DNA from: Phaeotremella fagi
Lineage: Eukaryota; Basidiomycota; Tremellomycetes; Tremellales; Phaeotremellaceae
Direction of reading: 5' to 3'
Assembly (NCBI GenBank): GCA_001599715.1
Contig: BCHU01000006.1
Span: 1,098,765 to 1,162,764, forward strand
DNA length: 64,000 nt
Part shown: positions 30,471-53,237 of the stretch, in pieces
How the letters are laid out: every line of letters begins with the position of its first letter
Numbering within the stretch: position 1 is the first letter of the stretch
Program-made: the position numbers and the translations under genes
Notes under the pieces: model-generated
What the model saw: only the letters and a program-made list of their open reading frames with translations
Databases searched by the model: none
Told to the model about the DNA's origin: nothing

Positions 30471-30479
30471 GCCGTAGGC
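30471..30479. promoter_or_regulatory. Cluster palindromic motif, copy 1 (GCCGTAGGC)
   Basis: Exact core of the recurrent element, in context CTCGCCGTAGGCCTA, 65 bases upstream of the carbamoylase start and in the region shared with the divergent regulator gene. The motif is a palindrome with a three-base centre. Binding by a cluster regulator is inference. Confidence 0.6.
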
Positions 30480-30616
30480 CTAGATGAACTGAAGAAGAGA
30501 TCAGGGTTCTCACGTGGGTTGTTGACAACGCTATTTTTATATCGCCTCTTAGCGCCCCTAAGTATTTCCCTACTTCCCTATTCTCTTAAACGGGTACCTC
30601 CCATAAGGGTTATTCT

Positions 30617-30625
30617 GCCCAAGGC
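30617..30625. promoter_or_regulatory. Variant of cluster motif (GCCCAAGGC)
   Basis: Same GCC-N3-GGC frame with CAA in the centre, in context CTGCCCAAGGCCAA, 15 bases before the first ATG of the regulator gene. The identical 9-mer recurs at 45313. A weaker match, possibly an autoregulatory site. Confidence 0.35.
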
Positions 30626-30639
30626 CAAAGGAATTCGCT

Positions 30640-32955
30640 ATGATGAAGCTCATAAACACAACCATGTCCAATATTTTCAACACCAACAGCGCCATCTCTC
30701 ATACAGACCATTTCAACCCCCCCGGTTCGAATATCTCCGGGGGGCGACCTCCGCGTTCTAGAAAGAACAGACCTTGCGATCGATGTCGAAAAGCCAAATC
30801 ACGCTGCACGATTACCAGCACTGGACCTCCATGTACAGAATGCTCTGAGACTGGTAAAGTTTGTAGCTTTGATTTCGCTCCACCACCCCGCAATAAACGA
30901 CCTCGAGAAACTCAAAGTCCAATTCACTTTCAGGATGGGGAATCAATGGTGCCGCAGGAGGTCACCACGTCGACGTCTTCAACAGGATACACCACCCAGG
31001 ACACGTCCCAAGATGCTCCACAGGATCGATCCAAGTCCAGAGTGAACAAAAGGAAGGCTTCGATTTCGCTACCGGTCACAGGGTTGGACCTTCTGGCCAC
31101 TGCAGTTCCCTCATTTGACAACATGGCTAGCTCAGCATTCGATCCTCAAGGTGAGCAAGATGTTTGAACTCGCATTAACAATCAACTCAGTTCTCACGGT
31201 CGTCCTCACCGATGACTTACTTCCAATATCTGGATCCGTGAATCCTTCAAACAAAGACGAAGCCTACGTCAGACAAATCGTGAGTGATCGTCATCGTTCA
31301 GTGTCTAATGTTAGTCTGCCGATCCTACACGACCGGTATTTGTGGTCATGCAGCCCAAGTCAGAGGGTAAGTGCCAGAATTCTTGCTTCTGTACTAACCA
31401 CGCCAGATACTCTGACAACCTCGTCCACTTCGTCTTCTTTGTTACACTTGAGGAGATTCCTTCAGAGTCATCCAATGAATCCAACCGAAGCGACTCTTGT
31501 CAATCTCTACAATTCGTTGATACATACCGCTCTTCCTATCCTGGCAAACACCGAGCCCAGCAACCTTCCACCTCACTTACTCGCCGTAATACTCTGTTCA
31601 GCACTCAGTCACTCAGTTTCCTATCGTCCTCTAGCCCCTGTCGCCGTTGGTCTTCTAGGGACAACATCATTGGATCACACAGAGAACAGTCTTGCTGGCG
31701 TTGCATCTGCAGTGCTCGAGCTTGGAATGCGACCGGGCTCGAACCCTCGATTGATGTTTCTTTCCATTGCAAAGGTGGGTTCGTTTATCCAATCATTACT
31801 GACAAACAAAATAGACCATTGCTCTGGCCCAATTACTAGGAATGCATATGGATCCTCTTAAATGGGCCATTCCAAAGTGGGAACAGCAACTGAGGATTAG
31901 ATTATGGTGGACACTCTGCATCCATGACGCTTGGATGAGTTTTTGTAAGTCTTCTAATCTAAAACACTCGATTGACCTTTTAGTAAATTCTAGGCCTTGT
32001 CATATCCAAGCAGGCAATTCAACAGTGCCTCTGCCGTCTATCGGATCAATCATCGACGCCGCACCATCAATTGGCGCTCCCTCTCCGTCGATCGCTTCCG
32101 CCAAATCCTTTGTTTCATCTTGTCGGCTGGCTCAGCTGGTTTGTCGATTTCAAGCTAAAGTCTGTACTTTGGCTACATTCAGTAATCCTGAGGAGAGAAA
32201 GGAAGAAACCGTGGAGCTCGGCAATGCAGTTGATGAACTATATTTTGAATGGAAGGATTCTATTGATGATCAACGTCCCAGGAACACTGGTGTCAGTAAG
32301 TCAAATATATTGGCACAATTATGCTGACGTTCAGATTCATTCTTGATCATGCTGTTAGGATTTCGCTGCATGCTCAAGCGTATTCAGGTCGAGCTTGAAC
32401 ATGGGCTTGGTTCAGCGTTCACCTTCTCCAGTGAAATTGTTGCACCCTTTCACGTCTGTGTGACATTTCTAAGCAAGCTGTCTGATGATGAGCTTGACGG
32501 CTATTTCTTAGGTTGTAAGTGGAATGACATACGTTCTCGACTGACCGCTAGACGTTTCCCATATACTGTTATCCGTGGTATCATCATTGGTTCGTCTTTC
32601 GATAGCATCCGATTTTGGACCAAACACAGAAGCTCTCGGTCTTTTGACAACGTTGGTCTCAACGCTACATCGTTGGAATTCTGTCAATTCTTGGGATTTG
32701 GCCAAAGCTGCTCTTCGACGGGCGGCTGCGATCGCGGAAAGATTCAGAGGCATGAACGAACATTCAGAACTGTGCAACGCATTACAAAGTGCTGGTCACT
32801 CTTCTTCCAACATTCTTCCTGCAAATGACATTGCCTTCACAATGGACATTCCACTTTACCCTACTACCATGGCACCCGATCAACAGCTGTCATGGAATGT
32901 CACTACAACGGATATGGACTTGGATTTTGGGACTATGTTCAATTTCCTGACTTGA
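30640..32955 (+). CDS. Zn2Cys6 fungal-specific transcription factor, candidate cluster regulator
   Basis: DNA-binding regulator. Possible starts at 30640, 30643 and 30664 all keep the zinc cluster. The binuclear cluster is complete: CDRC, six residues to C, eight to C, then CTEC and six residues to C (CX2CX6CX8CX2CX6C). It is flanked by basic RPPRSRKNRP and PRNKRPRE. A Ser/Thr/Gln-rich linker follows (STSSTGYTTQDTSQDAPQD). The fungal_trans middle homology region is spread over several exons, including LGMHMDPLKWAIPKWEQQLR-type sequence at about 31830-31890 and RLWWTLCIHDAWMSF. It ends TMFNFLT at 32955. At least six introns; some internal borders are uncertain. It lies inside the catabolic cluster and is divergent from the carbamoylase, so control of the cluster is a reasonable inference. 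Confidence 0.88.
30718..30744. repeat. GC-rich perfect inverted repeat inside regulator 5' coding region
   Basis: CCCCCCGG at 30718-30725 and CCGGGGGG at 30737-30744 are perfect inverse complements with an 11-base loop. They lie about 80 bases into the coding sequence, just before the zinc cluster. In mRNA this would form a strong hairpin, which might slow initiation or scanning to downstream starts. It is coding (PPGSNISGGRP), so it may be incidental. Confidence 0.6.
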
Positions 32956-33342
32956 TACGTCGGGAAACTCGACTCTTCTATTCAAGTCAAGTTATAGTGT
33001 TTATGTAATATGTGTGTACTCAATTTTTAGTGTTTTCGGGCAAGCCCAAAAGATAAGGTATTCACCAATTCTGTGACATCTTGTTTCCTAGCTCAATGTG
33101 ACTTTTGCTTATAGTCAAAAAGTAAATGATAGAAACATCCCTGAAACGGATTGAGCTACTTATCTTCATTGACTTAGGTGCATGGGATCTGAGTTGATAA
33201 GCCAAAAAGCAACATGTGGTCATGGACATTTTAGGTTTTTAGAATCAAGGGCAGAATTGCCGAAGGCGAGCTAAACGCTAATCTCAGCTTAAAGATCCAA
33301 ACCCGACCAATTCTTTACTTCATTGATTCTCAACAAAGCAAA
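32956..33342. other. Intergenic: regulator 3' region and hydantoinase promoter
   Basis: 387 bases with no gene. It contains the motif copy at 33257-33269 and, between it and the ATG, a pyrimidine-rich leader (attctttacttcattgattc) just before 33343. Confidence 0.5.
33257..33269. promoter_or_regulatory. Cluster palindromic motif, copy 2 (TTGCCGAAGGCGA)
   Basis: Core GCCGAAGGC at 33259-33267, 76 bases upstream of the hydantoinase ATG. The outer bases TTG and CGA match the extended palindrome except for one position. Confidence 0.65.
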
Positions 33343-35063
33343 ATGGCTACAGTGTTTGATTTCGATCTGGTTATCAAGAATGGTATCGTCGTCACCGCCG
33401 CGGTAAGTGTTGAGTGTCCATGAGAATCTATATCGTTCTAAAAACATGTTTCAGGATGAAACCGCTTGCGACATAGGAGTGAAGGATGGTATGGTGGTTT
33501 GCTTGGCTCAGAACCTACCTTATGGACCCAATTGCGAGGTGATTGATGCAGAGGGTGGCTATGTGACTGTAAGCTGTGATCATCGACATTGTGGGGCTCT
33601 TGACACTAATGCCTCTGCATAGCCTGGAGGTATCGATTCCCACGTTCACATTGGCCAATCAGCTTCTGGTGCTAGGAGCGCTGATAACTGGACGACTGGA
33701 ACGAGAGGTGCTATCAGTGGTGGAACCACGACTGTGCTGGCTTTCGCAGTACAAGCTCGAGGTACCTCGGTCATGGATGCAGTCAATGCATACTACAAAC
33801 TAGCGGATGGCAAAACTCACTGTGATTACTCGTTTCACACAATCGTAACGGATCCCAACGAACGGGTTATCACAGACGAGATTCCCAAAATGATCGATTT
33901 TGGAATAACTAGTGTCAAGGTGAGTAGACCATCTTGATCAGAAATAACGCCAGATCTATATGACATATCCTTTACTCAAACTCAACGACAAACAAGTATT
34001 GGACATTCTTTGTGCTGCTCGTAAAACAGGAGTGACAACTATGGTTCATGCTGAGAATGCTGATATCATTGATTGGATGACTAAAAATTTGGTTGAAAGA
34101 GGAATGGTTGAACCTTGGCATCATGGAACATCGCGTCCTCCATTGGTAGAAGACGAAGCAACAAATCGAGCGATCGCCCTTGCTGAAGTTGTCGACGCTC
34201 CAATGCTCATCGTTCACGTTAGCTCCAAAGAAGCTACGGCTCATATTCGTAAAGCTCAAACACGCGGTCTTCCTCTCTACGCAGAGACCTGTCCACATTA
34301 TGCACTTCTTACCGCAGAGAAGATGCAAGCTCCAGGATTCGAAGGGTAAGTTCACAACCACGACAATTCTGATGGTTTCAGGGCAAAATGCGTTTGCGCT
34401 CCTCCTCTTAGATCTGATCCTGCCGATAAGCAAGGAATATGGGATGGACTCGCGAATGGTACTTTCACAGTCTTCTCTTCCGATCATGCTCCTACCAACT
34501 TCCATGACGAAAAGGGTAAACAGCTAGGTCTTATCAACAATCCAACCAAAAATCCTCGAGGCCATTTTTTGTCAATTCCGAACGGTCTTCCAGGGGTATG
34601 CACTCGAACTCCTCTGCTCTGGTCTGAAGGTGTCTTGAAGGGACGCATCACAAGACAAAAATTCGTAGAATTGAACTCTACCAACGCAGCTAAACTTTAC
34701 GGAATGTATCCGAAGAAGGGAACGATTCAGCCTGGTTCAGATGCCGACTTTGTGATTTGGCGATCAAAGGACAAGCGAGAACCTGTCACCATCAAGCAAA
34801 CTATGTTACATCATGGCGCTGACTACACTCCTTATGAAGATATGGTCATCGAAGACTGGCCTAGATTAGTTATCCTTCGAGGTAAAATCGCTTATGATGG
34901 TGAGAACAACAAAGTCGTGTGCGCGGAAGGAACTGGAAATTTCATCAAACGGGGGTTCAGCTCGTTACCGTAAGTCAATTATTTGAGATTTAGCTAAGCA
35001 ACTTTCAGCGGTCCAAGAGGCCACTCGACTGCGTGGATTAATGGCTTCGATCCCTATGCTTGA
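33343..35063 (+). CDS. Hydantoinase/dihydropyrimidinase
   Basis: Zinc amidohydrolase that opens cyclic ureides such as hydantoins or dihydropyrimidines to N-carbamoyl acids. The ATG at 33343 opens MATVFDFDLVIKNGIVVTAA. PGGIDSHVHIGQ supplies the HxH metal pair. The carboxylated Lys is at the exon junction GITSVK/IYMTYP. Further metal ligands lie in MLIVHVSSKEAT (His) and FSSDHAPTNF (Asp). LYAETCPHYALLT is typical of the family. Five introns were inferred. The frame would stop at 34971, but a GTAAGT...CAG intron there joins the C-terminal exon GPRGHSTAWINGFDPYA, with the stop at 35061-35063; this tail fits the family better. Next to it are the carbamoylase and regulator. Whether the natural substrate is hydantoin or dihydrouracil cannot be read from the sequence. 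Confidence 0.93.
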
Positions 35064-35107
35064 TTTATTACGTAGATACATTATGCAATTAGTTAGCTTT
35101 CATTCAT

Positions 35108-35122
35108 TCGCCGGTGGGCAAA
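35108..35122. promoter_or_regulatory. Loose variant of cluster motif upstream of class II aldolase gene
   Basis: TCGCCGGTGGGCAAA resembles the extended palindrome but has four bases, not three, between GCC and GGC. It lies about 120 bases before the aldolase ATG. A weak call, kept because of position. Confidence 0.25.
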
Positions 35123-35243
35123 TTCAGAAAATCAAGGTTTTGAACTCTTTTGCCGGCGCCATCGAGCCACATTCTATGCCACTCGCTATATTTCGCAATC
35201 TACAGCTTCTCGTCAACGTCTCTCATTCACGAAAGTATCCAAG

Positions 35244-36377
35244 ATGGCTCCTATCGCAATTCACGACGCTACAGTAGACGCAACTCCAATTGTTAAGCCC
35301 GATGTCGAGTTCAAACAATCAACTGCAGATCTCAATAAGAATCCCTTAGAGCGTACTTGGAGAGGCGACAGAGAAAACACTTTGAGGATTGAAGCGTACC
35401 CTTCTTTCATGAACAGTGTTGATGAAGAAAGTTTATTGAAGAAAAGACAATGGGTTAGGGTATGTTCTCCTAACTGCAATTGCTGATGATGACAGGAACA
35501 TCTCGCACTCGCATTTCGTTACTGGGGGAAGATGGGATATGGTGAAGGGATCAGGTAGGTATCCACACTGTTTTCGTGCTCACCATGACAGTGGTCACAT
35601 AACCGTTCGTGATCCAATCTTACGTGATCATTTCTGGATGAACCCATTCGGTGTACACTTCTCTGGGATGTCAGTCAGCGAGTGAGTTGTTTTTGAGACA
35701 CAAACACTAAACAGACAGTCTTGTTTTAGTCACTCCCGATGGATTCGTTCATGCTCTAGGAAACCAAAGACCAATCAATGTATGTAAAAACGTGAACCAA
35801 TAATGCAGGAGCTGATTATCACAGATGGCTGGCTTTTACATCCACTCTGCGATCCATCACGCTAGACCAGAAGTTGAGGCTGCTGCTCACTGTCATTCAC
35901 TCCACGGAAAGGCTTGGTCTGCCTTTGGTCGTCCAGTCGACATCGCAACCCAAGATGCTTGTTTATTCTACGATAACCAAGTCGTTTACGAGAATTTTGG
36001 TGGAATTGTTCTTGCAGCTGAAGAAGGAGCTAACATCGCCAAAGCGTTGGGTCCCAAAAATAAATGCTGCATCTTGCAGAATCACGGTTTACTCACTTTG
36101 GGTGACACTCTTGATGAAGCGGTTTATCTCTTCTCCGCATTGGACAAACAATGTAAATGTCAACTCATGATAGAGGCAGCTTCAGCTAGTGGAATCAAGA
36201 AGACAGTGATCGATGATGTAGACGCTAAATTCACCGCTGCCACCATTCAATAGTGAGTCCTGGGCTTTTGAAATCTTGTTCTGTTGTTGATGATCTTTCA
36301 GTCCAGAGAATGTTTACTACAATTTACACCCCGAATTAGAACTCATTCGCAAGCGTGAGCCTGATGTATTAAATTAG
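35244..36377 (+). CDS. Class II aldolase/adducin-domain protein
   Basis: Zn-dependent aldolase/epimerase-fold enzyme; relatives cleave phosphorylated or free hydroxy-acids and sugars, and fungal members are mostly uncharacterised. The ATG at 35244 opens MAPIAIHDATVDATPIVKPD. After the first intron the frame reads EHLALAFRYWGKMGYGEGIS, then GHITVRDP and FWMNPFGVHFSGMSVS, the typical start of the fold. Metal ligands are visible as AAAHCHSLHGKAWSAFG (two His) and CILQNHGLLTLGDTLDEAV (third His). It ends YYNLHPELELIRKREPDVLN at 36375-36377. Five introns. It is co-directional with the hydantoinase, 180 bases downstream of it. The substrate is unknown; a hydroxy-acid intermediate of the cluster pathway is possible. 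Confidence 0.9.
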
Positions 36378-37696: not shown

Positions 37697-39984
37697 ATGT
37701 CGGAAAAGAATAGCAACTTGGAGGACGAGAAGAATATCAGTGGCTATCAGCCTGATGACATCAATGTCATGGTCAACGATGCCGCTGTCCCTGTTGTTGA
37801 ACACGAGGAGTCTGGTGACATCAAAGTCGACGTGCATACCCATATCTGTGTGTCCCCTTTCCTTAATCGCCCAGAATGAATCAAAACTAACTTCTTTAAC
37901 AGACGATGGTGTCCACAGAAAGATGAAACAACGTCACATGCAGATGATTGGGCTTGCTGGTACTTTGGGTACCGGTTTATTCTTGGGTAGTGGTAAAACC
38001 ATCCGTCAAGGTGGACCATTGGGAGCACTGTTAGCTTATATGCAAACCGGTTCAATGTCTTACTGCATGTGTAAGTACATTTCCTCGAAGAAAGTAGTGA
38101 TTGAAGACTGACGACGACTATTCCAGTAATGTCTCTCGGTGAAATGGCTGTCTATGCGTGAGCTATACTTATCATGATTTAGGGTTTGTTCTCTGACCTA
38201 GTGACAGACCTATCTCTGGTGGTTACATCCATTATGCAGAGCGTTGGCTCCACCCATCCGTCGGTTTTGCTCTTGGTTGGCAAGCTGTCTTGTCTCACAG
38301 TATCTCTCTCCCCAACGAGCTTATTTCTGGAAGTATTTTAATCGGTTACTGGGACACGAGTGAGTCATTTTCATTCTATCTTTGCACTAGTAGCTGATAG
38401 TAAACCTCTAGACATGCCAAACTCTCACACTGCTGCTTACCTCACTGTCTTAATGGTTCTCTGTGCAGGAATTGTGAGTCTTTCAAAGCTTTGTTGACAT
38501 AACAAAAACCCTAATGTTGTAGAATTTCTTCGGTGCTAAATGGTTCGGTGAAAGTGAAGTGAGTCAAGAGTCGCCTGTTGTATCGTACAACCTCGCTGAC
38601 AACATATCAGTTCTGGTTCTCATTGATCAAAATTCTCTTGATTGTTGGTCTTATTCTCGCTGGTCTCATCGTCGATCTTGGAGGTAACCCTGCTGGAGAA
38701 CGTATTGGTTTCAGATATTGGCAAGACCCTGGACCATTCGTCTACTACCTCTTATCTGGAAGCAAGGGTAAGTCCGTTTGAAGATAGCAACCCTCAACTT
38801 GAAAAATGCTTAACTCTCATCTCTTCAGGTCAATTCGCTGGATGGTTCACGGATCTCACGCAAGCCGCTTATTCTTTCTTGGGTATGGAGTCGATCGCTA
38901 TCGCAGCAGGTGAAGTTCAGAACCCAAGAGTTTCCGTTACCAAGGCCATCAAGAGAGGTGAGTCGCATAATCTCTAGAAAATTGAGTCTCTTTGCTGATA
39001 CTTTGCAAAGTCTTCATCAGAATCTGTCTCTTCTATGTTGTCGGTATTCTCATCATCGGAATGCTCGTACCTTCCAACGACCCATTGTTGTTGTCTGCAA
39101 CTGGTACCACTGCAGCCTCCTCTCCTTTCGTTATTGCCTTTTCCCGTCTCGGTATCAAGGCCTTGCCATCCATCATCAACGCCTGTGTTCTTACATCAGC
39201 ATTCTCAGCTGGAAATACCGGTGTATATATCAGTTCAAGAATGCTTTACGGTTTAGCTCTTAGAGGTCAAGCTCACAGAGTCTTCGCCAGAACCACTAAG
39301 GGAGGTTTGCCAATTGTCGCTTTGACATTCGTCATCTGCTTCATGCCCTTGTCCTACATGGCTCTCGCTTCAGGAGCCCAAACTGTCTTGAACTGGCTTA
39401 CTCACTTGACTGCTCTGTAAGTGATTCGTCTCTCATCCTCGTGGATAGTCGCTGACACAGCTGGTTAGTTCCGGAATCCTCGTTTGGTGTACCATTGCTT
39501 GCACCTACATCCGCTTCAAAAAGGGTGTAGATGCTCAAGGTATCGACAGAACAAAGTTCCAGTGAGTTCCAACCTTAATGCAGCTTCGAGGCGATAACTT
39601 AACTTTATTTTACAGCTACTACAACCGATTCCAGCCATTCATCGCTTACTGGGTTATCTTCTGGTGTTGCATCGTGAGTAGCATTTTGATAAGGTTCTTG
39701 CACAGAGCGCTGAACTTCACTCTTCCTAGGTTCTTCTCTTCAACGGTTGGACAGTTTTCCTCGATGGTCAATGGAACGTTTCCAACTTCCTTGTTGCATA
39801 CATCAACTTGCCCCTCTTCTTCGGTGCTATTTTGGGTCATTGGCTACTCCACGGTAGACCCAAGTTTACCAAACCCGCCGATCTCGACATGTACAGCAAC
39901 ATCCCCAAGGACGAGGATGTTTCATACACCGAGCCACCACCAAAGAATTGGTTCTACAAGGCGGTCAACTTCTTATTCACTTAG
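37697..39984 (+). CDS. Amino-acid permease (APC superfamily, YAT type)
   Basis: Plasma-membrane proton-coupled amino-acid transporter. The ATG at 37697 opens MSEKNSNLEDEKNISGYQPD. After an intron come RKMKQRHMQMIGLAGTLGTG and LFLGSG, the signature of TM1 in fungal amino-acid permeases. MSLGEMAVYA, PISGGYIHYAERWLHPSVGF and ALGWQAVLSHSISLPNELIS follow. Later exons give FFGAKWFGESEFWFSLIKIL, QAAYSFLGMESIAIAAGEVQ, then SSRMLYGLALRGQAHRVFAR. It ends PPPKNWFYKAVNFLFT at 39984. About ten introns and roughly twelve hydrophobic helices. It sits within the cluster and has its own motif copy. Uptake of an amino acid or carbamoyl/ureide-type substrate used by the cluster is inference. Confidence 0.93.
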
Positions 39985-40659
39985 AAATGGCAAGATGTTG
40001 TGCGAGAAAGCAATGTTGGGATGGACTATAGGGTTGTTAAAATTGACAGTGTGATCGTTTCGGTGTTGAAATTGGGTGTGATAGATTTGATAATTAGATT
40101 TATGGTGTTATGCAGTTGTCTTTTTAAAGCGAAGCTGCACATCAATTTGGTCGACATACTAGAACAGACCGTTCCATTACCGAAGGTCTTAACGTCGTAT
40201 GCAGTTTTGAGATCTGTACCAAGAATAAACAAACTATGGACCTTCTACCAAGCGATCAACAGGTCTCGTTCAATATTGACGTTTCCAGGCCGCTTGAAAA
40301 ATATTCAGTAATCAGAGGTGGGGTATCGTAGTAGAGCAATCTCCATCATACCTGTAAAAACACTCACTAAGCTATTCAGAACGATAACGCGAAAAGATGC
40401 TTCAGAACGAAGAAGAAGAAGAGACCGTGAGAACGTTATTAATGGACCCAGCTAAGTGAAGCTATTCCCATTGTTAGATAGAACGACCATACTGTATATG
40501 GGTCGATTGATGTCACGGATGATTTCTCCATTTGATTTCTTGACTTGTGTTTTGTGATTTCACTATGGTATCTGTCTCATGATGAACTACGAAATTTGTA
40601 TTCGCAAACTTCGTTTGATGGTAAGAATAATTCATGTATCAAATCGATGACCAAAAATC

Positions 40660-40696
40660 GACGAATCGATGACAACAGTGGACGAATCGATACAGT
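40660..40696. repeat. Imperfect tandem repeat based on GACGAATCGAT
   Basis: GACGAATCGAT begins at 40660 and again at 40681, each followed by ACAGTG (the first copy has an extra GACA-type insertion). AATCGATGA also occurs just upstream at about 40642, and the inverse GATTCGTG follows at 40699. Possible remnant of a local duplication. Confidence 0.6.
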
Positions 40697-40868
40697 GGAT
40701 TCGTGAACCATGATCCTTCTCCATGACGTGTATTTAATTGTGGAAGACTTATCACTGATTCAGGGAAAATCTGGCGTAAATTCTAGGCGCTGTCAATGTT
40801 CGGAAAATCCGTAGAAATTTGCCCTGAAAATTCAAAATAGGCAAAGAAACGGCCGAATCAAAAAAAAG

Positions 40869-40908
40869 AGTGACCGATTCAAGAAAACAGTGACCGATTT
40901 GAAGAAAT
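40869..40908. repeat. Two 20-base tandem copies starting AGTGACCGATT
   Basis: Copy 1 is 40869-40888 and copy 2 is 40889-40908. Both begin AGTGACCGATT and then carry an A-rich tail (CAAGAAAAC versus TGAAGAAAT). No function is evident. Confidence 0.6.
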
Positions 40909-41015
40909 AGCGGGCGAAATGACAAAAAAGCCTTGATGACTAGAAATGAAGAATTCGGGGGTCTTGATGATGACAAAATTCAGGGATTTATGTCAATCCC
41001 AGTCAATGCGCACCG

Positions 41016-41028
41016 TCCCCTACGGCAA
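41016..41028. promoter_or_regulatory. Degenerate cluster motif (TCCCCTACGGCAA)
   Basis: The right half TACGGCAA matches the element exactly; the left half has C instead of G in the core (CCCTACGGC). It is about 785 bases upstream of the monooxygenase, farther than other copies. Confidence 0.3.
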
Positions 41029-41543
41029 AGAACATCACAAAAGATTGCTATTTGAAATCATCGGGGGTTTTTCTGTTTTTCTACCTTTTGAGAATTTTGC
41101 CCCCTTTGACATTAGAAAAATTAAGGTCAGGGTTCAGGATTCTTTAAGTCTAATTTCATGTTTGCGGGGTAAGCTACTGAACACAGCGATAGCTAAATGT
41201 AATTCCGATCATTGTCGCCTTTGTATATATCATCATTGTTGATATTTTTCATCCACTTGGTTCAACTTCTTATTTTACCTCCTTCGCTCCATTCAGTGTT
41301 GATTCGAGTCTCATATCATATTCCTGGTTCGAGAGACTATTTTCTCGGTCAATCTCTCAATAGCACTATCAAGGGTTGCCACACGGGGTTTTGCGGCATT
41401 ATCAATGAAAAGACAGACGTTCATACAACGCCGCAATATCACTCTGAACTACATTTCCGAATTGGATGCTCCTAACTCAAGGAGAGTTGCTGTAAAACAT
41501 TTGTTTCCACTTTGGATGTCTTTCCTTCTTCCTACCTTCCTTT

Positions 41544-41590
41544 CATGACTCTCTCTTCTTCATGCTCTTCTCTTCAGAAGAAGAGTCATG
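41544..41590. repeat. Imperfect inverted repeat, CATGACTCT...AGAGTCATG
   Basis: The left arm at 41544-41559 (CATGACTCTCTCTTCT) pairs with the right arm at 41576-41590 (AGAAGAAGAGTCATG) with one bulge. The loop is 16 bases of CT-rich sequence. It lies 220 bases upstream of the monooxygenase start. TGACTC within each arm resembles an AP-1/GCN4-type site, so each arm might be a bZIP site; this is inference. Confidence 0.55.
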
Positions 41591-41694
41591 ATTGATGTTC
41601 AGAAAAACGTTTTATAAGTCTCTCGATTGCATCCCTCGAAAGCACATGTGTCGCACGTTGTGTTTGGTTCCACGAGTTCAGGGAATAAAGGCAA

Positions 41695-41707
41695 TCGCCT
41701 ACGGCAA
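41695..41707. promoter_or_regulatory. Cluster palindromic motif, copy 4 (TCGCCTACGGCAA)
   Basis: Core GCCTACGGC at 41697-41705, the reverse complement of copy 1's core, 106 bases upstream of the monooxygenase ATG at 41813. The outer bases match the extended palindrome except one. Confidence 0.65.
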
Positions 41708-41812
41708 ATTCGTTGTATTCATTATCAGCGGTTTTTTTTTTTGGGTTATGAATATATGCACAATACCACGATTAATGACACTCAAAGAACTCCCTACCAA
41801 GCTTTAAATATC

Positions 41813-43904
41813 ATGCATTGCACCGCCAACACTCAAGAAGAAGATTCATGGCAGCTGCCAAGACCCATAAGTCGGGTCGCCGTCATTGGTGTCGGCTCAG
41901 CTGGCGTAAGTTCTTATCGTCCTAGGAAATAATAACGCTGACGTTCATCAGATGCCCATGATTCGTCATTTACACGAAGCTGGAATCGAGGTGGTTGCTT
42001 ATGAGCGAAACGACCATGTCGGAGGGATTTGGAAACTGAAGACTGCCAGAGGATTGGTACCACCTATGCCTACCGTTGAATCAAGTAGAACTGACTACAC
42101 TCCTGAGGTAATTGAACTCATTCTTTTTTGCGAAGATGTGTTGATCTTGGTGATTTAGCTACCTGGAAGCTCAGGTCTTTCTCAAACAGAGAAAGTCACG
42201 GTCAGCGCAACGGAGGCTAACGAGATGAAATTAAAATTTGCCCCACCTGGACCAGCCTACAGTACTTTGAAAAATAACATTCCCGCACCAATCATGGTTT
42301 ACCAAGATTCGTGAGTGACTTCACATTTTTTAGATAAATGTCAACTAACGTCTTGCAGACCTCGATCTCCCGAAGAGATGTATGTCTTCCACAACGAACA
42401 TCAAGCGTATCTCGAGGAATATGCCCTTAAATATGATCTTGCAAAATTTACGAGGTTCAACACGAGGGTAGAGAAAGTGGAGGAGGTTCTTGATGCGGAA
42501 AACAAGTCACAGGGCTGGCGTGTTTGGAGCCAAACTATGGAGGTTGAGAGTATGGGTGACAACGCTGAAGTGACTAGGACATGGAATTGCGAGGTGAGGA
42601 TGACAGCAGAGAGATTGAGACCAAAGCTGATGTTAAACTTTGAAGAATTTCGACGCTGTTGTCTGCGCTTCTGGTCATCACAAGTGAGTATTGTTTTTTC
42701 AGAGTTCCTAACTAGATCTATCGCTAATTACTTATCATAATAGTGCTCCTGCAATCCCTCACTTCCCTGGACTTTCAGATTGGCGTAACACATGGCCAGA
42801 TCGAATGTCTCACGCTTCCAACTTCAGAGATGGAAAAGATTTCATCAACCGTAAACGGGTATTGATTGTTGGAAGTGGACCATCGGGATCAGATATAGCT
42901 AGGGAAGTTGCAGTCTACGCTGAGCACGTATACGTCACAACAAGGCCATTCGAAACGGATGACACGCCCGACACAATGGTAGGTTTTGATTAATGAATCG
43001 TTTCCACTGGATTCAATGGTATGTTGGCTGACAGAAAATTAGATCGTCAAAACTGTCTTCAGAGATAGGATGGTTTCTGACCGGTGTTCACTCGTCCCTG
43101 GTATTAAACAATTCCACGCGATCAAAGATGCCAACGCCTTAGGTCAAGTTGAGATGATTGACGGAACCATACTCGAGGTCGACGCTGTAGTCTTTGCTAC
43201 TGGATACTACCATTCATATCCCTTCCTCAATGATTGGGAAGCAACAAGAAAAGACGATCCAACGACACAATTGGTTCAAGCACAATACACCGTTGCCAAC
43301 CTTCACTTGGATCTCTTTTACATACGTAAGTCTTACATACCTTGCAAAGAAATCATACTGACTTGATACACAGCTGATCCAACATTGATCATGCTTGGAG
43401 TTGCCGCCAATATCTGTGAGTCGCAAGTGCTAGTCCTGCGCTATAATCTGATCCCTTCGATAAGCTGCCTTTTCCTTTTTCGAGTATCACAGTCAAGCTG
43501 TCGCCAGAGTCTTTTCAGGATCAGCGAAGCTACCATCCAAACCAACCATGGCTAACATTCACCTCAAGCGACGAGCTCTAGTCTCTAATCGAAATCTTCA
43601 TGTTTACGGCAAAGTCGAAGAACCTCGAATTGTTCGAGAAATCGCAACTTGGTTGAATGAAGATGCCCAGAAGCTTGGTCGAAATGATTTGCCCGAGATT
43701 AAGCCTTACTCGGATGAGTACATGGAGATCAAATCGAGGACCGTAGCGGGTCTTAGGATGAGAGATGAGGTTGAAGATGTCCGATTGGCCAGTGACAGAG
43801 AAGCCTTTTTGGTTTCTGCTGGAGCAAAGGGATCGAGACTAGAGTCTTCATCGAGAATGCCAGTGGCTACTGAAGTCTACCGAGGTGTGGAGGTAAAGGC
43901 ATAG
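41813..43904 (+). CDS. FAD-dependent monooxygenase (flavin-containing monooxygenase / N-oxidising type)
   Basis: FAD- and NADPH-dependent oxygenase; relatives oxidise soft nucleophiles (N, S) or carbonyls. The chosen start ATG 41813 gives MHCTANTQEEDSWQLPRPI and then SRVAVIGVGSAG, a GxGxxG FAD site, split by an intron from MPMIRHLHEAGIEVVAYERN. DHVGGIWK is the usual end of the FAD-binding unit. A second dinucleotide site VLIVGSGPSGSDIAREVA binds NADPH, just after SHASNFRDGKDF. VVFATGYYHSYPFLNDW is the conserved ATGY block. It ends YRGVEVKA at 43904. About seven introns. A longer frame is open upstream (in-frame ATG at 41750), but 41813 fits the fold. It is the first gene of the right half of the cluster; the substrate is not known. 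Confidence 0.88.
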
Positions 43905-44062: not shown

Positions 44063-45135
<1,073 letters not shown>

Positions 45136-45304: not shown

Positions 45305-45312
45305 AGGACAAC

Positions 45313-45321
45313 GCCCAAGGC
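45313..45321. promoter_or_regulatory. Variant of cluster motif (GCCCAAGGC), second copy
   Basis: Same 9-mer as at 30617, ten bases downstream of motif copy 5. A double site in the bidirectional promoter is possible. Confidence 0.35.
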
Positions 45322-45416
45322 TATGAGTTATTTTGGGATTTCACTCTTTCATTTTCTTATTATCACCAACATTATCTAAGACCTACTCATTAACCCACAA
45401 CGACGTATACCACATC

Positions 45417-46731
45417 ATGCCACTCGATCTCTCATCCTTATCAGCTGTTAACCTGTACAATGTCCGAAACAAGTGGACAGTCATCACTGGAGGTGGTTCA
45501 GGTGAGGTCTTTGTCCGAATTTAGCCTTTCCCCCCTATGTGTACGTGCTAACCATTCCTTAGGTATCGGTAGAGTCTTGGCATCAGCCTATGCAGTAAAC
45601 GGTGCCAATGTTATTATCACTGGACGAAGGAAGGAGGTTTTGGAAGAAACAGCCAAAGAAATCAACGAAGCCATCTCTGGGGGTCAAGGCAAGGTCTACC
45701 CGTAAGCTATCTTTATCTGGCACAAAACAGTATTTTATCATTTGTGAATAGGGTACAAGGTGACGTGTCTTCTAAAGCTGCTGTCGCTGCTATGGCTACG
45801 GCTATTGGTGAAGTCACCGAGGTCGTTGATGTTCTGATCAACTGTGCTGGTCTATTAAAGCCATGGCGAAAACAGTGTGACGTCAACGATGGTAAGTTTG
45901 ACTCACAAGACGACACTTTCCTCCTCTTACGTTCCTCGTAGTCGAAAATTTACAGTCCATGTTATGGGATGGTGTTGAAGAGTAAGCTAGTGTAAATTTC
46001 AGAGCTAATATGAAGTGATGACTTTGTGGACATGTCTCGAGGTGAGTTTCCTTCTTATCTGTTATCTTTGAATGCAGCTGACTCCTGTGATAGTCAACGT
46101 CAACGGTGAGATTCACAACAGCCTCACTTTCGTCTATCACATCTGACCATTCGATTAGGTGTTTACTTCACCACCGTCGCAATGATCCCTTTACTCAGAA
46201 AATCATCTCTACCTGTTGTCATTAACATCGCATCCCTTGCTGCTTTGGGATTGCAGAGAACAGGAAGTTCTGTTACTTTGGGAGCCACCAAAGCCGGTAG
46301 TGAGTCGCTTCCCAAGAATATCTCGACTAGTCCTGACCCTTCGTAGCTTTACACTTGACAGGATTATTGGCTTCACGACTGATCCCGTGAGTCCCATTTT
46401 TCGAAACATTGCACCCAGCTCAATCCCTTGCAGTTTCAAAATCCGTGTCAACGCGGTTTGCCCAGGTCTTTTCCCCAGTGCCATGACTGGTGATGGTAAG
46501 ACCCTCGCACCAGTCTTATCAGAAGCAGTCAAAGTCTCCCCTGTTGGAAGAGCAGGAAGACCAGAGGAGATCGCTGGACCAGTCTTGTTACTCGGATCAG
46601 ATGCTGGATCTTATATGGATAACGCAGTCTTGATTGTAGACGGTGGAAGATTGATCGTGAGTAGTAACTATTACACCTTTGAAGTCACAGCTGATATCGG
46701 TACAGACCATGTCAGCATTGTCATAGATTGA
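45417..46731 (+). CDS. Short-chain dehydrogenase/reductase B, catalytic Tyr apparently replaced by Leu
   Basis: The ATG at 45417 opens MPLDLSSLSAVNLYNVRNKW, then TVITGGGSG/IGRVLASAYAV across an intron, an intact TGxxxGIG cofactor site. VIITGRRKEVLEETAKEINE and VDVLINCAGLLKPW follow. The region around 45940-46160 is split into very small exons (NVNGVYFTT is the recognisable piece) and its borders are uncertain. The active-site segment reads VVINIASLAALGLQ, then SSVTLGATKAALHLT. The Lys is present, but the residue four before it is Leu where classical SDRs have Tyr. [15 protein letters not shown] and PVGRAGRPEEIAGPVLLLGS follow; the C-terminus is extended beyond IVDGGR. It may be catalytically altered. 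It shares its promoter with SDR A. Confidence 0.83.
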
Positions 46732-47081
46732 ATCGTCGTAGATTATATAGACTTCATAGTATCAGATCAGGGATGATATAAGATGACCGAAAAATCTAAA
46801 ATATTCGTATGCATCATGAGTTCAATTCAGCATCAAGGGAGCCCATGTCGTATCTTCTCTACATCAAAACCCAATATGCTATCGTCTCAACTTTCAAGTT
46901 TTGTGACCGTGTCAACTTCGCAGTGGTACAGTAGCATGCAAGAAAGAGGTTGACATTGAACTCTATGTATCTATGATCTATGACATCTTCAAATATTCTT
47001 GCGATACGATGAATAGCCTTCCTGACTCTTCCCATACCTTGAGCTTGTCTTTATTCACCCCCACTATCCACAATTACCCAT
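46732..47081. other. Convergent intergenic region between SDR B and D-2-hydroxyacid dehydrogenase
   Basis: 350 bases between two 3' ends. No open frame, repeat or motif copy was seen, consistent with terminator/polyadenylation sequence only. Confidence 0.45.
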
Positions 47082-48551: not shown

Positions 48552-48700
48552 AGTGGAACTCTTTTCGATATGGGTCGATGACTTAATTATGGCTCTGCCT
48601 TGGTGTTGTATCCCAACAAATCTCAGTTTTCAGGTGAAGAACAAGAAAAAAATCCTGACGTGGCATTTATTCGGTCATCTCCGACTTTCCCGAGCTAGTA

Positions 48701-48713
48701 GTGCCGTAGGCGA
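48701..48713. promoter_or_regulatory. Cluster palindromic motif, copy 6, in bidirectional promoter (GTGCCGTAGGCGA)
   Basis: Core GCCGTAGGC at 48703-48711, 150 bases from the hydroxyacid dehydrogenase start and 122 bases from the aminotransferase start. A single site in a 283-base shared promoter. Confidence 0.65.
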
Positions 48714-48834
48714 GTTTTGAGGTCAGTTGTCAAATGTGAATGTTCACCAGCACAATGGTTGTAAATTTAATTATTCATTCTTCATCACTATAGCTGAAAA
48801 GACCAACAGGTAGTCAACTATACAACTCATCATC

Positions 48835-50926
48835 ATGTCACCCGCACCCTCGCTTCCAGAAAGTCTCGATCTCCAACACCATCTGACCCCTCTTGTCAGA
48901 GCACAGCGACCTAGTGCAATGAAAGCGATGGGAAGATTGCTAAAGGAGAACAAGGGAATCAGGTCATTAGCTGGAGGTTTACCTCATCGTGAGTCGATTG
49001 AAGGTCCTGAACAGTCTCGTAATACATTTTTTGATTATTATTTTAGCCTCTCTCTTCCCCATGCAACACGCGACTTTCACAATGCCAACTCTGGAATCCA
49101 TTTCTAGTGGTTCTTTGGAGGGCTGGAAAAATGGAACCTCACAGACTGAGAACTTCCATTTCAAAAAAACTGGTCCTGGAACTGAGAATGATCCATCGGG
49201 AGTATATGACATCAACGAGGTCCTGCAATATGGTCTATCGAATGGTTTCCCGACGTTGATTGAGTTGATGGAGGAGCTCAACGAGTTGATGCACGGACGA
49301 GTCTTGAACGATTCAGAGATCTTCATCACCTGCGGAGGCTCAGATGGTGAGTGTTCTTTGCTTATAAGGTTTTGGTGGGTAAAATTGATTTTGACGTCTG
49401 TCTTGCGCAGGTATCTCGAAAGTGTTCCAACTTTTTGTGGAGCCAGTGAGTCTGGCTACTTTGTCACACCATTTGCAGTACTTACGAAATATTCACTTTC
49501 AGGGAATTGACACCGTATTGACCGAAGAGTATTCCTTCGATACATCCTTGATCAACGGCAAAGGCAGAGGTGCAAAATTTTTCCCAATCAAGACTGATGA
49601 CGATGGTATGGTCCCCGAGGATCTGGAGGATGTCTTATCGAACTGGGACGAAGCGAAGAAAGGACGCAAACCTCATTTGATTTATACTATTCCCTGTGGA
49701 CAGAATCCAACTGGTTCTGTGATGCCTGCGGAGCGTTACGAGAAGATTTATGAGATCTGTTCGAAGCACGACGTTATCATGTGAGTCGTCCTCGATACAT
49801 TCCTGGATTCTGGCTGACAATGGATGCAGAATGGAAGACGATCCGTACTTTGGTTGGTACATGCTACTTCATGTTTGAATTGGAACTGACTGAATCTCTT
49901 TAGCACTCCAATACAAGCCATACGTTGCAGATGTCACCAAGCGAGAAGAGATCTCGTCAGAGGCTCGAAACTCCATGTCCAATATCCCCTTGGGTCAAGA
50001 ACATTCACGAGAAGTTGCAAAAGTTTTCAACGACTATGCTGGCATCAGGAGCTACCTCAGTCGAGATACAGAAGGAAGAGTTGTGAGAATAGACACATTT
50101 AGTAAGATCTTTGGACCAGGTATCCGAACTGGATGGATTGCCTGTAATTCCCTTTTTGCAGAAAGGTTGATGAGGCTTGGAGGTAAGCGATCGTCCGCGT
50201 TCCTTTACAAAGATCAGTGACTTACCTCAATGAACAGAATCGTCAACGCAGAGTCCTAACAATGTCGGACAAGCAATTCTAGCCAGTTACTTGTCACCTG
50301 GACACTGGGGTGTTACTGGATTTATGCGTTGGATGTGGGGTAAGTCATTACATTCCTGTTTTATCCTGCATGTGCTAATGTTCGATGTCGTTTCTAGCGG
50401 TTCGACTCGAGTACCAAATGAAGAGAGACTATTTCATCGATTGTCTTACTAAATACTGTGATCCAAACCTTGTCTCAACCAAACCTTGTGGAGCCGGAAT
50501 GTTCCAATTCCTCGAAATCAACATCAAATCCCATGCTCGCTACAGTCGCACCAAGATCGTATCCGTCGCTGAAATTCCAACACAGACGTCTGACAAGATC
50601 ACCAGTAAACCGTTCGTTGGAACTGAGAGTGGGGACTACACAACGAACACGAGTGAATTGATGGATGAATTATGGCAATGCTTGATTGAAGAGGCAGGAG
50701 TCTTGTTGATGCCTGCTAAATTTTTCCTCGTCGAAAGACCAGGTGTGGATCAGACTGATAGATTGAATTTCTTCCGTGCAACGGTAAGTCATAGAAGTTT
50801 ATCTGTCTTGGACGTCGTTTTTCTGACACTTTGGTTGGGTTGTAGTTTGCCGGTGACATGCCTAACATCGACGAATCTCTCAAATCATTTGGAGCAGGAT
50901 TGAAAAAGTGGTTTGAAAGGGGATAG
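48835..50926 (+). CDS. PLP-dependent aminotransferase, class I/II (ARO8/alpha-aminoadipate type)
   Basis: Transfers the amino group of an aromatic or other amino acid to a 2-oxo acid. The ATG at 48835 opens MSPAPSLPESLDLQHHLTPL, then MKAMGRLLKENKGIRSLAGG followed by LP. LQYGLSNGFPTLIELMEELN, ITCGGSDGISKVFQLFVEPG and EEYSFDTSLINGKGRGAKFF build the large domain. PHLIYTIPCGQNPTGSVMPA and DVIMMEDDPYF contain the Asn and Asp that hold PLP. The Schiff-base Lys is in RIDTFSKIFGPGIRTGW. The C-terminal part includes KPCGAGMFQFLEI and ends LKKWFERG at 50926. About nine introns. It is divergent from the D-2-hydroxyacid dehydrogenase. The aromatic/aminoadipate grouping is by sequence character; the amino acid used is inference. 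Confidence 0.91.
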
Positions 50927-51300
50927 GACTAGTTAGACCAGATACGAGATAGCCATACTTATAGAGTAGTCCGGATGTATGTAATTGTTACGACTACAAA
51001 CGTTCCACTGTCAACATCTCAAATGCAACGATTACGAGGCTAGATCTTTGAAATGATGAGGTGATTGCTGTCATAAATGAAATTAATAAGATGATTTATG
51101 CATGTGAGGTGTCAAGTACAAGATATTGATCGGAGTGGAAGAGTTGCTGCATCAACAGAGCGTTCAGAGTGAAATATACCATGGAAGTCGCTTAATCAAC
51201 AACGAGATATACTTCCTAAGAATGATTAGCTACATTCGTATCTTTGAGCGAATGAAGAAAACTTACAGTCCCCATCCATTTGCTCCTATCCGCCTATCCC
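50927..51300. other. Convergent intergenic region, aminotransferase and PEPM-like gene 3' ends
   Basis: 374 bases with no supported gene and no motif copy. A small frame at 51126-51392 overlaps the neighbouring gene antisense and is not credible. Confidence 0.45.
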
Positions 51301-52233
51301 TCAAATCTTCTTCCACTCATCTTCTGCAGCCAACCAACCAATATCCCTTTCTAGGAGCTCACGTTGCTCTTCCTTGCTGTAACCACCCATAGTGTGCTCG
51401 TCCGAGTAGCGTGTGCTTTGAGATTTAAATACCTGTTTACCGTAATCCATCATACCGTACATGGATCCCTTTTCAAGGTAATGCATGGTAACCAAGTTGA
51501 AACCCAAAGCCGCAATATCCTCGAGCTCGACGAAAGGCTTGCCATCAACGACAGCGACATCACCAAACATCTTCCATCCTGGGAGAGCCTTAGCTACCTT
51601 CTGACATTCTTCTAAAGTACGAAGACCATGAACATATGTCATTTCCGCACCTAGTGCTTCTGCACGTACACAACGCTCGATAGCGTCATCAAGACCTTTT
51701 TCGAGTTTGGATTCAGTTCGGGCAATGACCACACAATCGGTACCTTCGCAAGCATCGATTGCGGCTTTGATTTTAGTGAGCCAGAGTTCTTGGGAAATGA
51801 CTGGGTGCTCGATATTACCGTCAAGCTTACCAGCCAAAGTAGCTGCTTCCATAGCTCGTCCGAAACGGGCGTAACCACGTTCGTTTGGTGTGTCCTCGAG
51901 AAGGATGGCAGCGGCACCTGCCTTAGCCAACCTCCTGCAGGTTCTGTAAGCCTGAGCTACGTCACCAAAACAGTCGTCTGCGTCGATGATGAGTGGTAGA
52001 GGTGAATAATCTGAGATTCTGTCCGTTGCCCAGATAAGTTCTTCCTGGTTGTGAAGTCCCATATCGGGGACACCAGACATACTGAAACCTAAGGATGCAC
52101 CACTGAGAAGAATAGCTTTGAACCCAGCCATCTCAGCAGCTTTGGCAGAGTAACAGTCCCAAACGCAAGGAGTGAAGACCTGTCCGGCAGACATGAGTTC
52201 ACGGAATGTTTTTCTGGGTCGTTTGTCGAACAT
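51301..52233 (-). CDS. Isocitrate lyase/PEP mutase superfamily lyase, intronless
   Basis: Members split or rearrange 2-oxo/2-hydroxy acids (2-methylisocitrate, dimethylmalate, oxaloacetate, phosphonopyruvate). A single uninterrupted frame of 310 codons from ATG 52233 opens MFDKRPRKTFRELMSAGQVF. ILLSGASLGFSMSGVPDMG, then LPLIIDADDCFGDVAQAYRT (metal-binding Asp cluster), and AAAILLEDTPNERGYARFG follow. VISQELWLTKIKAAIDACEG and CVVIARTESKLEKGLDDAIE are characteristic. The canonical KKCGH loop of isocitrate lyase is absent, and the loop after LLEDTPNERG looks more like the oxaloacetate-hydrolase/carboxy-PEP-mutase branch. The only larger gene in the window without introns, which would fit a bacterial origin or retrotransposition. 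Its start faces a 1-kb region with motif copy 7. Confidence 0.9.
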   Translation of the reverse strand: MFDKRPRKTFRELMSAGQVFTPCVWDCYSAKAAEMAGFKAILLSGASLGFSMSGVPDMGLHNQEELIWATDRISDYSPLPLIIDADDCFGDVAQAYRTCRRLAKAGAAAILLEDTPNERGYARFGRAMEAATLAGKLDGNIEHPVISQELWLTKIKAAIDACEGTDCVVIARTESKLEKGLDDAIERCVRAEALGAEMTYVHGLRTLEECQKVAKALPGWKMFGDVAVVDGKPFVELEDIAALGFNLVTMHYLEKGSMYGMMDYGKQVFKSQSTRYSDEHTMGGYSKEEQRELLERDIGWLAAEDEWKKI

Positions 52234-53237
52234 TTTGATCAGTTGAAAAGGGGTGTGATGTGCGGTGAGTGTCGAAAGGCAAGTCTGATATCAAGTGCGA
52301 TACTACACCAGAAAGGTCAGTACAATTGGATGACCTCGATAAAACGACGACTTACGAGATTCTAGCAAGTTGATAGGCCCTCTGTGGTTTGAAGAATGGA
52401 TGTAATGGTTGAAAAGTTTTTAACATCAAGAAGCAGTGAGTGCTACACATTACACAGATAACCAAAATTGGCCGTAGGCGAGATGTTGAAACCCTGGATT
52501 TCTCACCAATTGGAATTAGCGTGACCGCATGCTTCCACCTTCTTCATTCCCGTACGGTCTAAATCTATTTTCGGTCACTCTGTTGCTAGGCATTAATTAA
52601 ATATTCACAGAGCTTAAACTTAGTGAGATGCCCATCAAAAGAGAGTGTACTTACAGACACGTGCCTTAATCAACACTGAAGTATTCCGAATCTCACTCTG
52701 TATTCTCGGAGTAAACACACGTCCACGAAGAAGACTCTGACTACCAGATGGACATGGCAAGGAGCAGTAAGATGTACCTGCTCTGGAGCTTGATACGATT
52801 ATGTAGGAGTCAATTAAGCAATTACTCTCAGACCTTTAAACAGGGGACCGAGATGAAAGCTAGCGCTTGGCTGCTGGACGATTACGTGGCTAGCTCAACA
52901 GTTTAGGTATATATATTAATACTTAAATTAAATAATTTATGTACGTCTCTCCAGTGCAGCTATCTGCAGAGTAAGTTACTTGACTTACCACAACCTGATT
53001 AAATATAATTGAATTTAGGCAAGCCGTGTGTGATCGTCAATCAGATCAATCATGCATATGATGGATAAACTTCAGGTACCATCAACCCTCTTATCACCTT
53101 GCACCGTCTTGCCGACGCGTAGACTGACTTCGTAGTAACATTCTCAATGGCTAGCATGCGTTGGCAACATACTCTGGCATTCACGCTGAAAATCATTTGA
53201 TTCCTACACTTCATCCATCTCATACGTTACTACCGAA
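52234..53237. other. Divergent promoter region of PEPM-like lyase and ketoreductase, with motif copy 7
   Basis: 1.0 kb between divergent starts. It contains the motif at 52469-52481, an AT-rich block (tatatatattaatacttaaa) near 52910-52930, and a half-match TTGCCGAC at 53109-53116, about 120 bases before the ketoreductase ATG. No gene is supported. Confidence 0.5.
52469..52481. promoter_or_regulatory. Cluster palindromic motif, copy 7 (TGGCCGTAGGCGA)
   Basis: Core GCCGTAGGC at 52471-52479, 238 bases upstream of the PEPM-like gene start, in the region shared with the divergent ketoreductase. The rightmost exact core copy in the window. Confidence 0.62.

What the first reader, a model, noticed from the sequence alone, without database searches (positions are those of the whole stretch)
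30471..52481. Palindromic promoter element TTGCC-GWA-GGCRA marks a previously unseen catabolic regulon
Seven exact copies of the core GCCGWAGGC (either orientation) occur at 30471, 33259, 37393, 41697, 45294, 48703 and 52471. At equal base composition about one would be expected in 64 kb. All seven are intergenic. Each lies 65-300 bases upstream of a start codon, and two sit in bidirectional promoters. Variants are at 30617, 45313, 41018 and 35108. I saw no exact core outside the 29-53 kb block. Together they tie the carbamoylase, hydantoinase, permease, monooxygenase, both SDRs, hydroxyacid dehydrogenase, aminotransferase and PEPM-like lyase into one unit. Regulation itself is inference; the copies and positions are read directly.
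Basis: partly seen in the sequence, partly recalled or inferred. Interest (0 to 1): 0.9.

Follow-up and report, generated by a model that had tools for sequence, protein, structure and literature searches.

The report
Fungal hydantoin-cluster regulon with captured gene
In a fungal genome (likely of the order Tremellales), seven copies of one short DNA motif lie just upstream of ten neighbouring genes and are likely the switch by which the cluster's own regulator would turn on breakdown of hydantoin-type nitrogen compounds, including one gene that likely came from rhizobial bacteria.

Summary
GCCGWAGGC occurs 7 times in the window, all intergenic, and 53 times in the 22.6-Mb genome. The 22-kb block would hold 0.045 by chance (P 7e-14), and an unbiased enumeration ranks it first of 282,240 patterns. 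The window is fungal: 11 intact genes, ten with introns. Seven of eight intergenic regions, serving ten genes including a Zn2Cys6 regulator, carry one exact core each; the class II aldolase does not. Flanks are unrelated. Corrections: three divergent promoters, not two; consensus GCCGWAGGCRA, not a full palindrome; variant 35108 unsupported.

(2) The PEPM-like gene is intronless and 90-93% identical to Rhizobiaceae proteins; in 22 of 29 bacterial loci a hydantoinase and an N-carbamoyl amidohydrolase follow it. It too has the motif.

Binding, regulation and substrate are inferred. Best reading: a cluster-specific regulon of a known kind, unusually informative about rewiring.

The parts
29308..30406 (-). 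carbamoylase gene (3 exons), N-carbamoyl-D-amino-acid hydrolase type
   Evidence: model; PF00795; 6led 241.6 bits
30471..30479 (+). exact core GCCGTAGGC in the divergent carbamoylase/regulator promoter (64 and 160 bases from the ATGs)
30617..30625 (+). one-mismatch variant GCCCAAGGC before the regulator
30640..32955 (+). Zn2Cys6 regulator gene (8 exons)
   Evidence: models; PF04082; PF00172 on the 65-residue piece
33259..33267 (+). exact core GCCGAAGGC, 75 bases before the hydantoinase ATG
33343..35065 (+). D-hydantoinase/dihydropyrimidinase gene (6 exons)
   Evidence: model; TIGR02033; 2fty
35244..36377 (+). class II aldolase-family gene; no exact core upstream
   Evidence: PF00596
37393..37401 (+). 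exact core GCCGAAGGC, 295 bases before the permease ATG
37697..39984 (+). amino-acid permease gene
   Evidence: model; PF00324
41018..41026 (-). one-mismatch variant GCCGTAGGG
41697..41705 (-). exact core GCCGTAGGC, 50 bases before the monooxygenase ATG
41756..43904 (+). FMO-like flavin monooxygenase gene
   Evidence: model; PF00743
44063..45135 (-). short-chain dehydrogenase SDR1
   Evidence: model; PF13561
45294..45302 (-). exact core GCCGTAGGC between SDR1 and SDR2 (158 and 114 bases from the ATGs)
45313..45321 (+). one-mismatch variant GCCCAAGGC
45417..46726 (+). short-chain dehydrogenase SDR2
   Evidence: model; PF13561
47082..48551 (-). D-2-hydroxyacid dehydrogenase-family gene
   Evidence: model; PF02826
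48703..48711 (+). exact core GCCGTAGGC between HADH and aminotransferase (151 and 123 bases from the ATGs)
48835..50927 (+). class I/II aminotransferase gene
   Evidence: model; PF00155
51301..52233 (-). intronless PEPM-like gene, predicted rhizobial origin
   Evidence: PF13714
52471..52479 (+). exact core GCCGTAGGC, 237 bases before the PEPM-like ATG

Best explanation
Seven copies of GCCGWAGGC stand in seven of the eight intergenic regions of an 11-gene fungal cluster and are likely the binding sites of the cluster's own Zn2Cys6 regulator, which would switch on ten of these genes, its own included, for a predicted hydantoin-type catabolic pathway. Shown: positions, rarity, one exact core per region, unrelated flanks, an intact regulator gene in the cluster with a core in its own upstream region, and regulator-carbamoylase linkage in other basidiomycetes. 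Inferred: a dimer of the regulator binds the core and activates when a pathway compound is present; the hydantoinase opens a cyclic ureide, the D-carbamoylase removes the carbamoyl group, and the aminotransferase, dehydrogenases, monooxygenase and PEPM-like enzyme process the released amino acid. The PEPM-like gene was likely acquired from a Rhizobiaceae hydantoin operon and came under the same site. A paralogous cluster with a sister regulator likely uses a site one base different (GCCGWCGGC), so the two regulons may have separated by divergence of site and DNA-binding domain.
For: Seven exact cores, shuffle mean 0.21; 53 genome-wide, backwards control 63; P 6.9e-14; first of 282,240 patterns. 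Flank identity 0.254 against 0.257 for random intergenic pairs, so the sites are not copies of one duplicated promoter. Coding score <=2.9 at 7 of 7 window sites, >=3.0 at 17 of 28 sampled outside sites. Regulator: PF04082 on the full protein, PF00172 on its 65-residue piece. Paralogous cluster; GCCGWCGGC at 18 places genome-wide, 2 in that cluster's promoters, P 3.7e-5. PEPM-like gene: 90-93% to Rhizobiaceae, grouped with six Rhizobium/Rhizobiales rows (93/97); ErtD and ErtE homologues follow it in 22 of 29 loci.
Against: No binding, expression or growth data; no DNA of a related species could be read. The core lacks the two CGG triplets usual for the family (recalled). The aldolase region has no core, and the core in the regulator's own promoter has the least typical flanks. 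5 of the 11 outside GCCGWAGGCRA sites have a low coding score (<3) and may be further promoters, so exclusivity is not proven. Substrate unknown; no racemase gene was recognised among the 11 genes. The full-length regulator scan did not list PF00172 at E<=0.001.
Confidence: 0.78

Rival explanations
1. The motif is bound by some other, possibly global, transcription factor, and the local Zn2Cys6 protein acts elsewhere or through another site.
For: No binding data; the half-site is not a plain CGG; 46 copies exist elsewhere in the genome, 5 of 11 RA-type ones with low coding score.
Against: A global factor would need sites across the genome, yet outside the cluster the core (46) does not exceed the genome-wide backwards control (63). 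The regulator's own promoter has a core, and the sister cluster with a sister regulator has a one-base relative.
Confidence: 0.14
2. The copies are chance, or a by-product of composition or of promoter duplication.
For: The core is G+C-rich and was picked after inspection.
Against: Rarity and first rank in an unbiased enumeration; flanks no more alike than random intergenic DNA.
Confidence: 0.02
3. The cluster degrades pyrimidines by the reductive route (dihydropyrimidinase, N-carbamoyl-beta-alanine hydrolase, aminotransferase) rather than hydantoins or D-amino-acid precursors.
For: The closest solved relative of the hydantoinase is a dihydropyrimidinase (2fty, 411.7 bits); an aminotransferase is present.
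Against: No dihydropyrimidine dehydrogenase among the 11 genes. The carbamoylase matches N-carbamoyl-D-amino-acid hydrolases (241.6 bits) far above the next class (55.8 bits or less). The paralogous cluster has a hydantoin-racemase-family gene; the donor-type operon has a hydantoin-5-propionate amidohydrolase above its cut-off.
Confidence: 0.25
4. The two regulators are not separate: both bind both site types and cross-regulate the two clusters.
For: Sites differ by one base; in yeast MalR paralogues Malx3 binds both site classes (PMC4172970, passages).
Against: Each cluster has only its own exact core; the two DNA-binding domains differ between the second and third cysteine (RKAKSR against RRRKTR).
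Confidence: 0.3

Closest known systems
Pathway-specific Zn2Cys6 regulons of fungal gene clusters (for example AflR, PrnA, NirA; recalled, not from a call)
   Same: Zn2Cys6 gene inside the cluster; one short dyad-like site per promoter, shared by divergent pairs; likely autoregulation
   Different: Core GCC-GWA-GGC has one CCG and one AGG instead of two CGG triplets; no fungal hydantoin-type cluster turned up in my searches; one target is predicted to be a bacterial gene
Yeast MalR regulators Malx3 and Yfl052w (PMC4172970; passages)
   Same: Paralogous Zn-finger regulators whose sites differ by one nucleotide in the triplet (CGC against CGG)
   Different: Here the change is on one half only (CGGC against AGGC), the spacing is short, whole gene groups are paralogous, and nothing has been tested at the bench
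Bacterial hydantoinase process: racemase, D-hydantoinase, D-carbamoylase (recalled)
   Same: The paralogous cluster carries genes of all three classes; the window cluster of two
   Different: Fungal, with introns and an own regulator; window cluster without recognised racemase and with seven genes not found by tblastn in the 50 kb around the sister cluster
Bacterial Ert genes (hydantoin-5-propionate amidohydrolase ErtD, N-carbamyl-L-glutamate amidohydrolase ErtE; NCBIfam)
   Same: The operon type around bacterial homologues of the PEPM-like gene carries both, above cut-off in the one locus scanned (L050)
   Different: Its ammonia-lyase scores as histidine ammonia-lyase; UbiD, UbiX and the PEPM-like gene are extra; the fungal hydantoinase is only about 25% identical to L050's ErtD

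Membership tests
Zn2Cys6 (Gal4-type) transcription factor | CX2CX6CX5-12CX2CX6-8C binuclear cluster | tested here: met
   CDRCRKAKSRCTITSTGPPCTECSETGKVC; PF00172 23.6 bits, cut-off 21, on a 65-residue piece; not listed at E<=0.001 for the full protein
Zn2Cys6 (Gal4-type) transcription factor | fungal transcription-factor middle domain | tested here: met
   PF04082 25.1 bits, cut-off 23
Cluster-specific regulon | motif enriched in cluster promoters over the genome | tested here: met
Cluster-specific regulon | regulator binds the motif and controls the genes | not testable with these tools
   no binding or expression data
Cluster-specific regulon | sites conserved in related species | not testable with these tools
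   no other fungal genome DNA was open to me; only the paralogous cluster could be compared
Classical Zn2Cys6 site (recalled) | two CGG/CCG triplets at fixed spacing | tested here: not met
   window core has one CCG and one AGG; the sister cluster's GCCGWCGGC does have CCG-W-CGG
N-carbamoyl-D-amino-acid hydrolase | full-length match and Glu-Lys-Cys residues (roles recalled) | tested here: met
   6led 241.6 bits over residues 1-330; FPE, YRKVH and ICNDRRW aligned
D-hydantoinase/dihydropyrimidinase | family score and HxH, Lys, His, Asp metal ligands (roles recalled) | tested here: met
   TIGR02033 482.1 bits, cut-off 393.25; SHVH, SVK, VHAEN, VHVSS, SDH aligned to 2fty. PRK13404 is below its cut-off (614.3 against 647)
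PEP mutase/isocitrate-lyase superfamily | family domain | tested here: met
   PF13714 116.7 bits, cut-off 31.5
2-methylisocitrate lyase (PrpB) | active-site loop cysteine (KRCGH; role recalled) and equivalog score | tested here: not met
   loop reads ARFGR against CGH in the aligned lyases; TIGR02317 124.9 bits, cut-off 354.4
Reductive pyrimidine catabolism cluster | dihydropyrimidine dehydrogenase in the cluster | tested here: not met
   none among the 11 cluster genes; rest of the genome not searched for it

The most novel reading that the evidence does not exclude
A gene from a Rhizobiaceae hydantoin operon entered a fungal hydantoin cluster and was wired into its regulon by gaining its own copy of the cluster's site, a site that had itself split by one base from that of a sister regulon. 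The genome would hold, side by side, two stages of rewiring: divergence of site and regulator after cluster duplication, and recruitment of a foreign gene into a pathway it already served in bacteria.
Probability: 0.45. Interest if true: 0.75.

Novelty: new member of a known kind. Interest (0 to 1): 0.55.

Why it matters
It offers a compact, testable fungal regulon: about ten targets, one candidate regulator and one 9-base core, with a sister set one base away in the same genome as a built-in specificity control. It also offers a concrete case for asking how a horizontally acquired bacterial gene comes under a eukaryotic pathway-specific switch, since donor-type operon, recipient cluster and site can all be named. 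My searches for a fungal hydantoinase-carbamoylase cluster gave 3 papers, none on such a cluster by title and abstract start, and none; the library is open-licence papers only.

Tried and rejected
Chance or composition: rejected. Promoter duplication: rejected. Bacterial-operon reading of the window: rejected, since the gene models need GT-AG introns. Variant 35108 tying in the aldolase: rejected. Contamination as source of the PEPM-like gene: thought unlikely, since it lies within a 1.6-Mb contig beside intron-bearing genes, with GC3 0.45 (its ten neighbours 0.41-0.52; the aldolase figure was made on a model corrected later) against 0.66-0.86 in five bacterial homologues, nucleotide identity 0.69-0.76. 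PEPM as a canonical methylisocitrate lyase: not met. Grouping of outside cores along the contigs: not tested. Not used: structure prediction, fold search, PHROGs, PADLOC, Rfam, viral scans. Papers: PMC4172970 and PMC11185503, passages only (the latter has no hit for hydantoin or Zn2Cys6); all others search listings only: 3 papers; 6; 3; 190, 12 listed; 13, 10 listed; 86 print GCCGTAGGC, 10 listed, none on a fungal promoter by title; two searches found none.

Full report
What the window is. Its genes are interrupted by short GT-AG introns, so it is eukaryotic. It lies at C6:1098765-1162764 of a 22,626,164-base genome in 24 contigs. Intron-aware models give 11 intact genes from 29308 to 52233 (the aldolase model was corrected by hand afterwards and the corrected protein matched PF00596). 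Only the PEPM-like gene has no intron.

The observation. Seven exact GCCGWAGGC cores are confirmed. Genome-wide there are 53, with 63 for the backwards control, so the core is at background outside the cluster and about 156-fold denser in the 22-kb block (7 in 22.0 kb against 46 in 22.6 Mb; hand calculation). Expected 0.045, P 6.9e-14. To allow for the post-hoc choice I enumerated 9-mers with up to one two-fold ambiguous position in the eight intergenic regions: GCCGWAGGC is first of 282,240. Beyond the core the sites share only RA on the right, in 6 of 7; the flanks are otherwise no more alike than random intergenic DNA. GCCGWAGGCRA occurs 17 times in the genome, 6 in the cluster. Of the 46 outside cores I read 28: the first 20 listed, plus 8 chosen because they carry RA. 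17 of 28 score >=3.0 for coding potential; 7 of 7 window cores score <=2.9 (Mann-Whitney p 0.006). The scorer is rough (5th percentile of known coding positions 2.3, 95th of intergenic ones 4.6) and the cut was set after seeing the scores. Five of the 11 outside RA-type sites score below 3 and could be further promoters.

The regulator. The 30640 gene encodes a Zn2Cys6 protein (PF04082; PF00172 on the excised piece). Among species where both proteins are listed show the same longest-contig length for both (a proxy for linkage); R. kratochvilovae has tags two apart (000945/000943); Meredithblackwellia has different contigs, against linkage; R. paludigena (different assemblies) and K. dejecticola (no contig given) could not be judged. 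Nine pairs have visible locus tags one to three apart, for example K. shivajii IL334_006202/006204 and Coniferiporia M0805_008963/008964. One listed protein joins a class II aldolase domain to this regulator type (P0055), and three join hydantoin-racemase and carbamoylase domains (P0131, P0141, P0175); these may be annotation fusions but point to gene neighbourhood.

The sister cluster. At C4:536-548 kb lie a transporter-like gene (read by eye, not scanned), a second Zn2Cys6 gene, a gene whose first exon matches PF14226 (non-haem dioxygenase), an Asp/Glu/hydantoin-racemase-family gene (PF01177, 119.1 bits, cut-off 31), a carbamoylase, a class II aldolase and a hydantoinase. It has no GCCGWAGGC. 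It has GCCGWCGGC 66 bases before the aldolase ATG and 103 before the hydantoinase ATG, and CCCGACGGC 76 before the carbamoylase ATG. GACGGCCAA is in 3 of 5 promoters but at 78 places genome-wide. This is moderate evidence. In the regulator tree (25 rows, quick method) the sister falls with seven Kwoniella regulators (SH-aLRT 100), the window regulator elsewhere among Tremellales, next to Dioszegia (93). All eight members of the sister clade read CRRRKTRC; the window regulator reads CRKAKSRC, and the four other Tremellales rows outside that clade in which the domain was found carry G or S at the same place. A link between this residue and the changed base is a hypothesis from two clusters.

The acquired gene. 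The PEPM-like protein is 90% identical to an Agrobacterium vitis protein and 93% to one of Rhizobium oryzicola, and groups with six Rhizobium/Rhizobiales rows (93/97). None of the 120 listed homologues bears a fungal name, though many are unnamed and 504 further hits were not shown. The window's genome has one other relative, 30% identical. In 29 bacterial loci, homologues of L050's genes were found as follows: solute-binding protein 29, UbiX 27, UbiD 26, HAL-like 25, ErtD 24, ErtE 24; counting only close homologues downstream of the PEPM-like gene, ErtD and ErtE together in 22 (L063 has a remote ErtE elsewhere, L072 only remote ones, five loci neither). In L050 ErtD and ErtE pass their NCBIfam cut-offs (748.7 against 600; 562.4 against 520). 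So the gene's bacterial home is also a hydantoin-processing operon. A core within the 1,006-bp region before the fungal gene has a chance of about 0.002 at the genome rate (hand calculation).

Mechanism. I commit to a pathway-specific activator binding GCCGWAGGCRA-like cores upstream of each gene, its own included. Gene content, motif, rarity and linkage are shown; binding, activation, inducer and substrate are inferred. Enzyme classes favour hydantoin or N-carbamoyl-D-amino-acid use over pyrimidines, but the substrate is open.

Verdict. A well-supported candidate member of a known kind of system (cluster-specific Zn2Cys6 regulon), made more interesting by the one-base sister site and the predicted foreign gene under the same site.

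Noticed in passing
G000:C4:536200-548390 (L042, L043): Paralogous hydantoin-type cluster with its own Zn2Cys6 gene and a hydantoin-racemase-family gene; none of the latter was recognised in the window cluster.
   Followed up: yes
window 51301-52233: Intronless PEPM-like gene 90-93% identical to Rhizobiaceae proteins: predicted bacteria-to-fungus transfer.
   Followed up: yes
L050-L078: Conserved mostly alphaproteobacterial operon type with UbiD, UbiX, solute-binding protein, PEPM-like gene, transporter genes, ErtD, ErtE and a histidine-ammonia-lyase-like gene; substrate unclear.
   Followed up: partly
G000:C6:661004-662711 (L046): Third hydantoinase paralogue, 43-46% identical; neighbourhood not studied.
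   Followed up: no
G000:C6:1268903, C6:1281932, C11:709533, C11:763141, C13:989927 (L099, L100, L103, L104, L106): Outside GCCGWAGGCRA sites with low coding score: possible further targets of the regulator.
   Followed up: partly
window 39985-41755: 1.8-kb region before the monooxygenase with an exact and a one-mismatch site about 680 bp apart; I made no gene model there.
   Followed up: no
P0055, P0131, P0141, P0175: Listed proteins joining aldolase with this regulator type, and hydantoin racemase with carbamoylase, in other fungi or unnamed sources.
   Followed up: no
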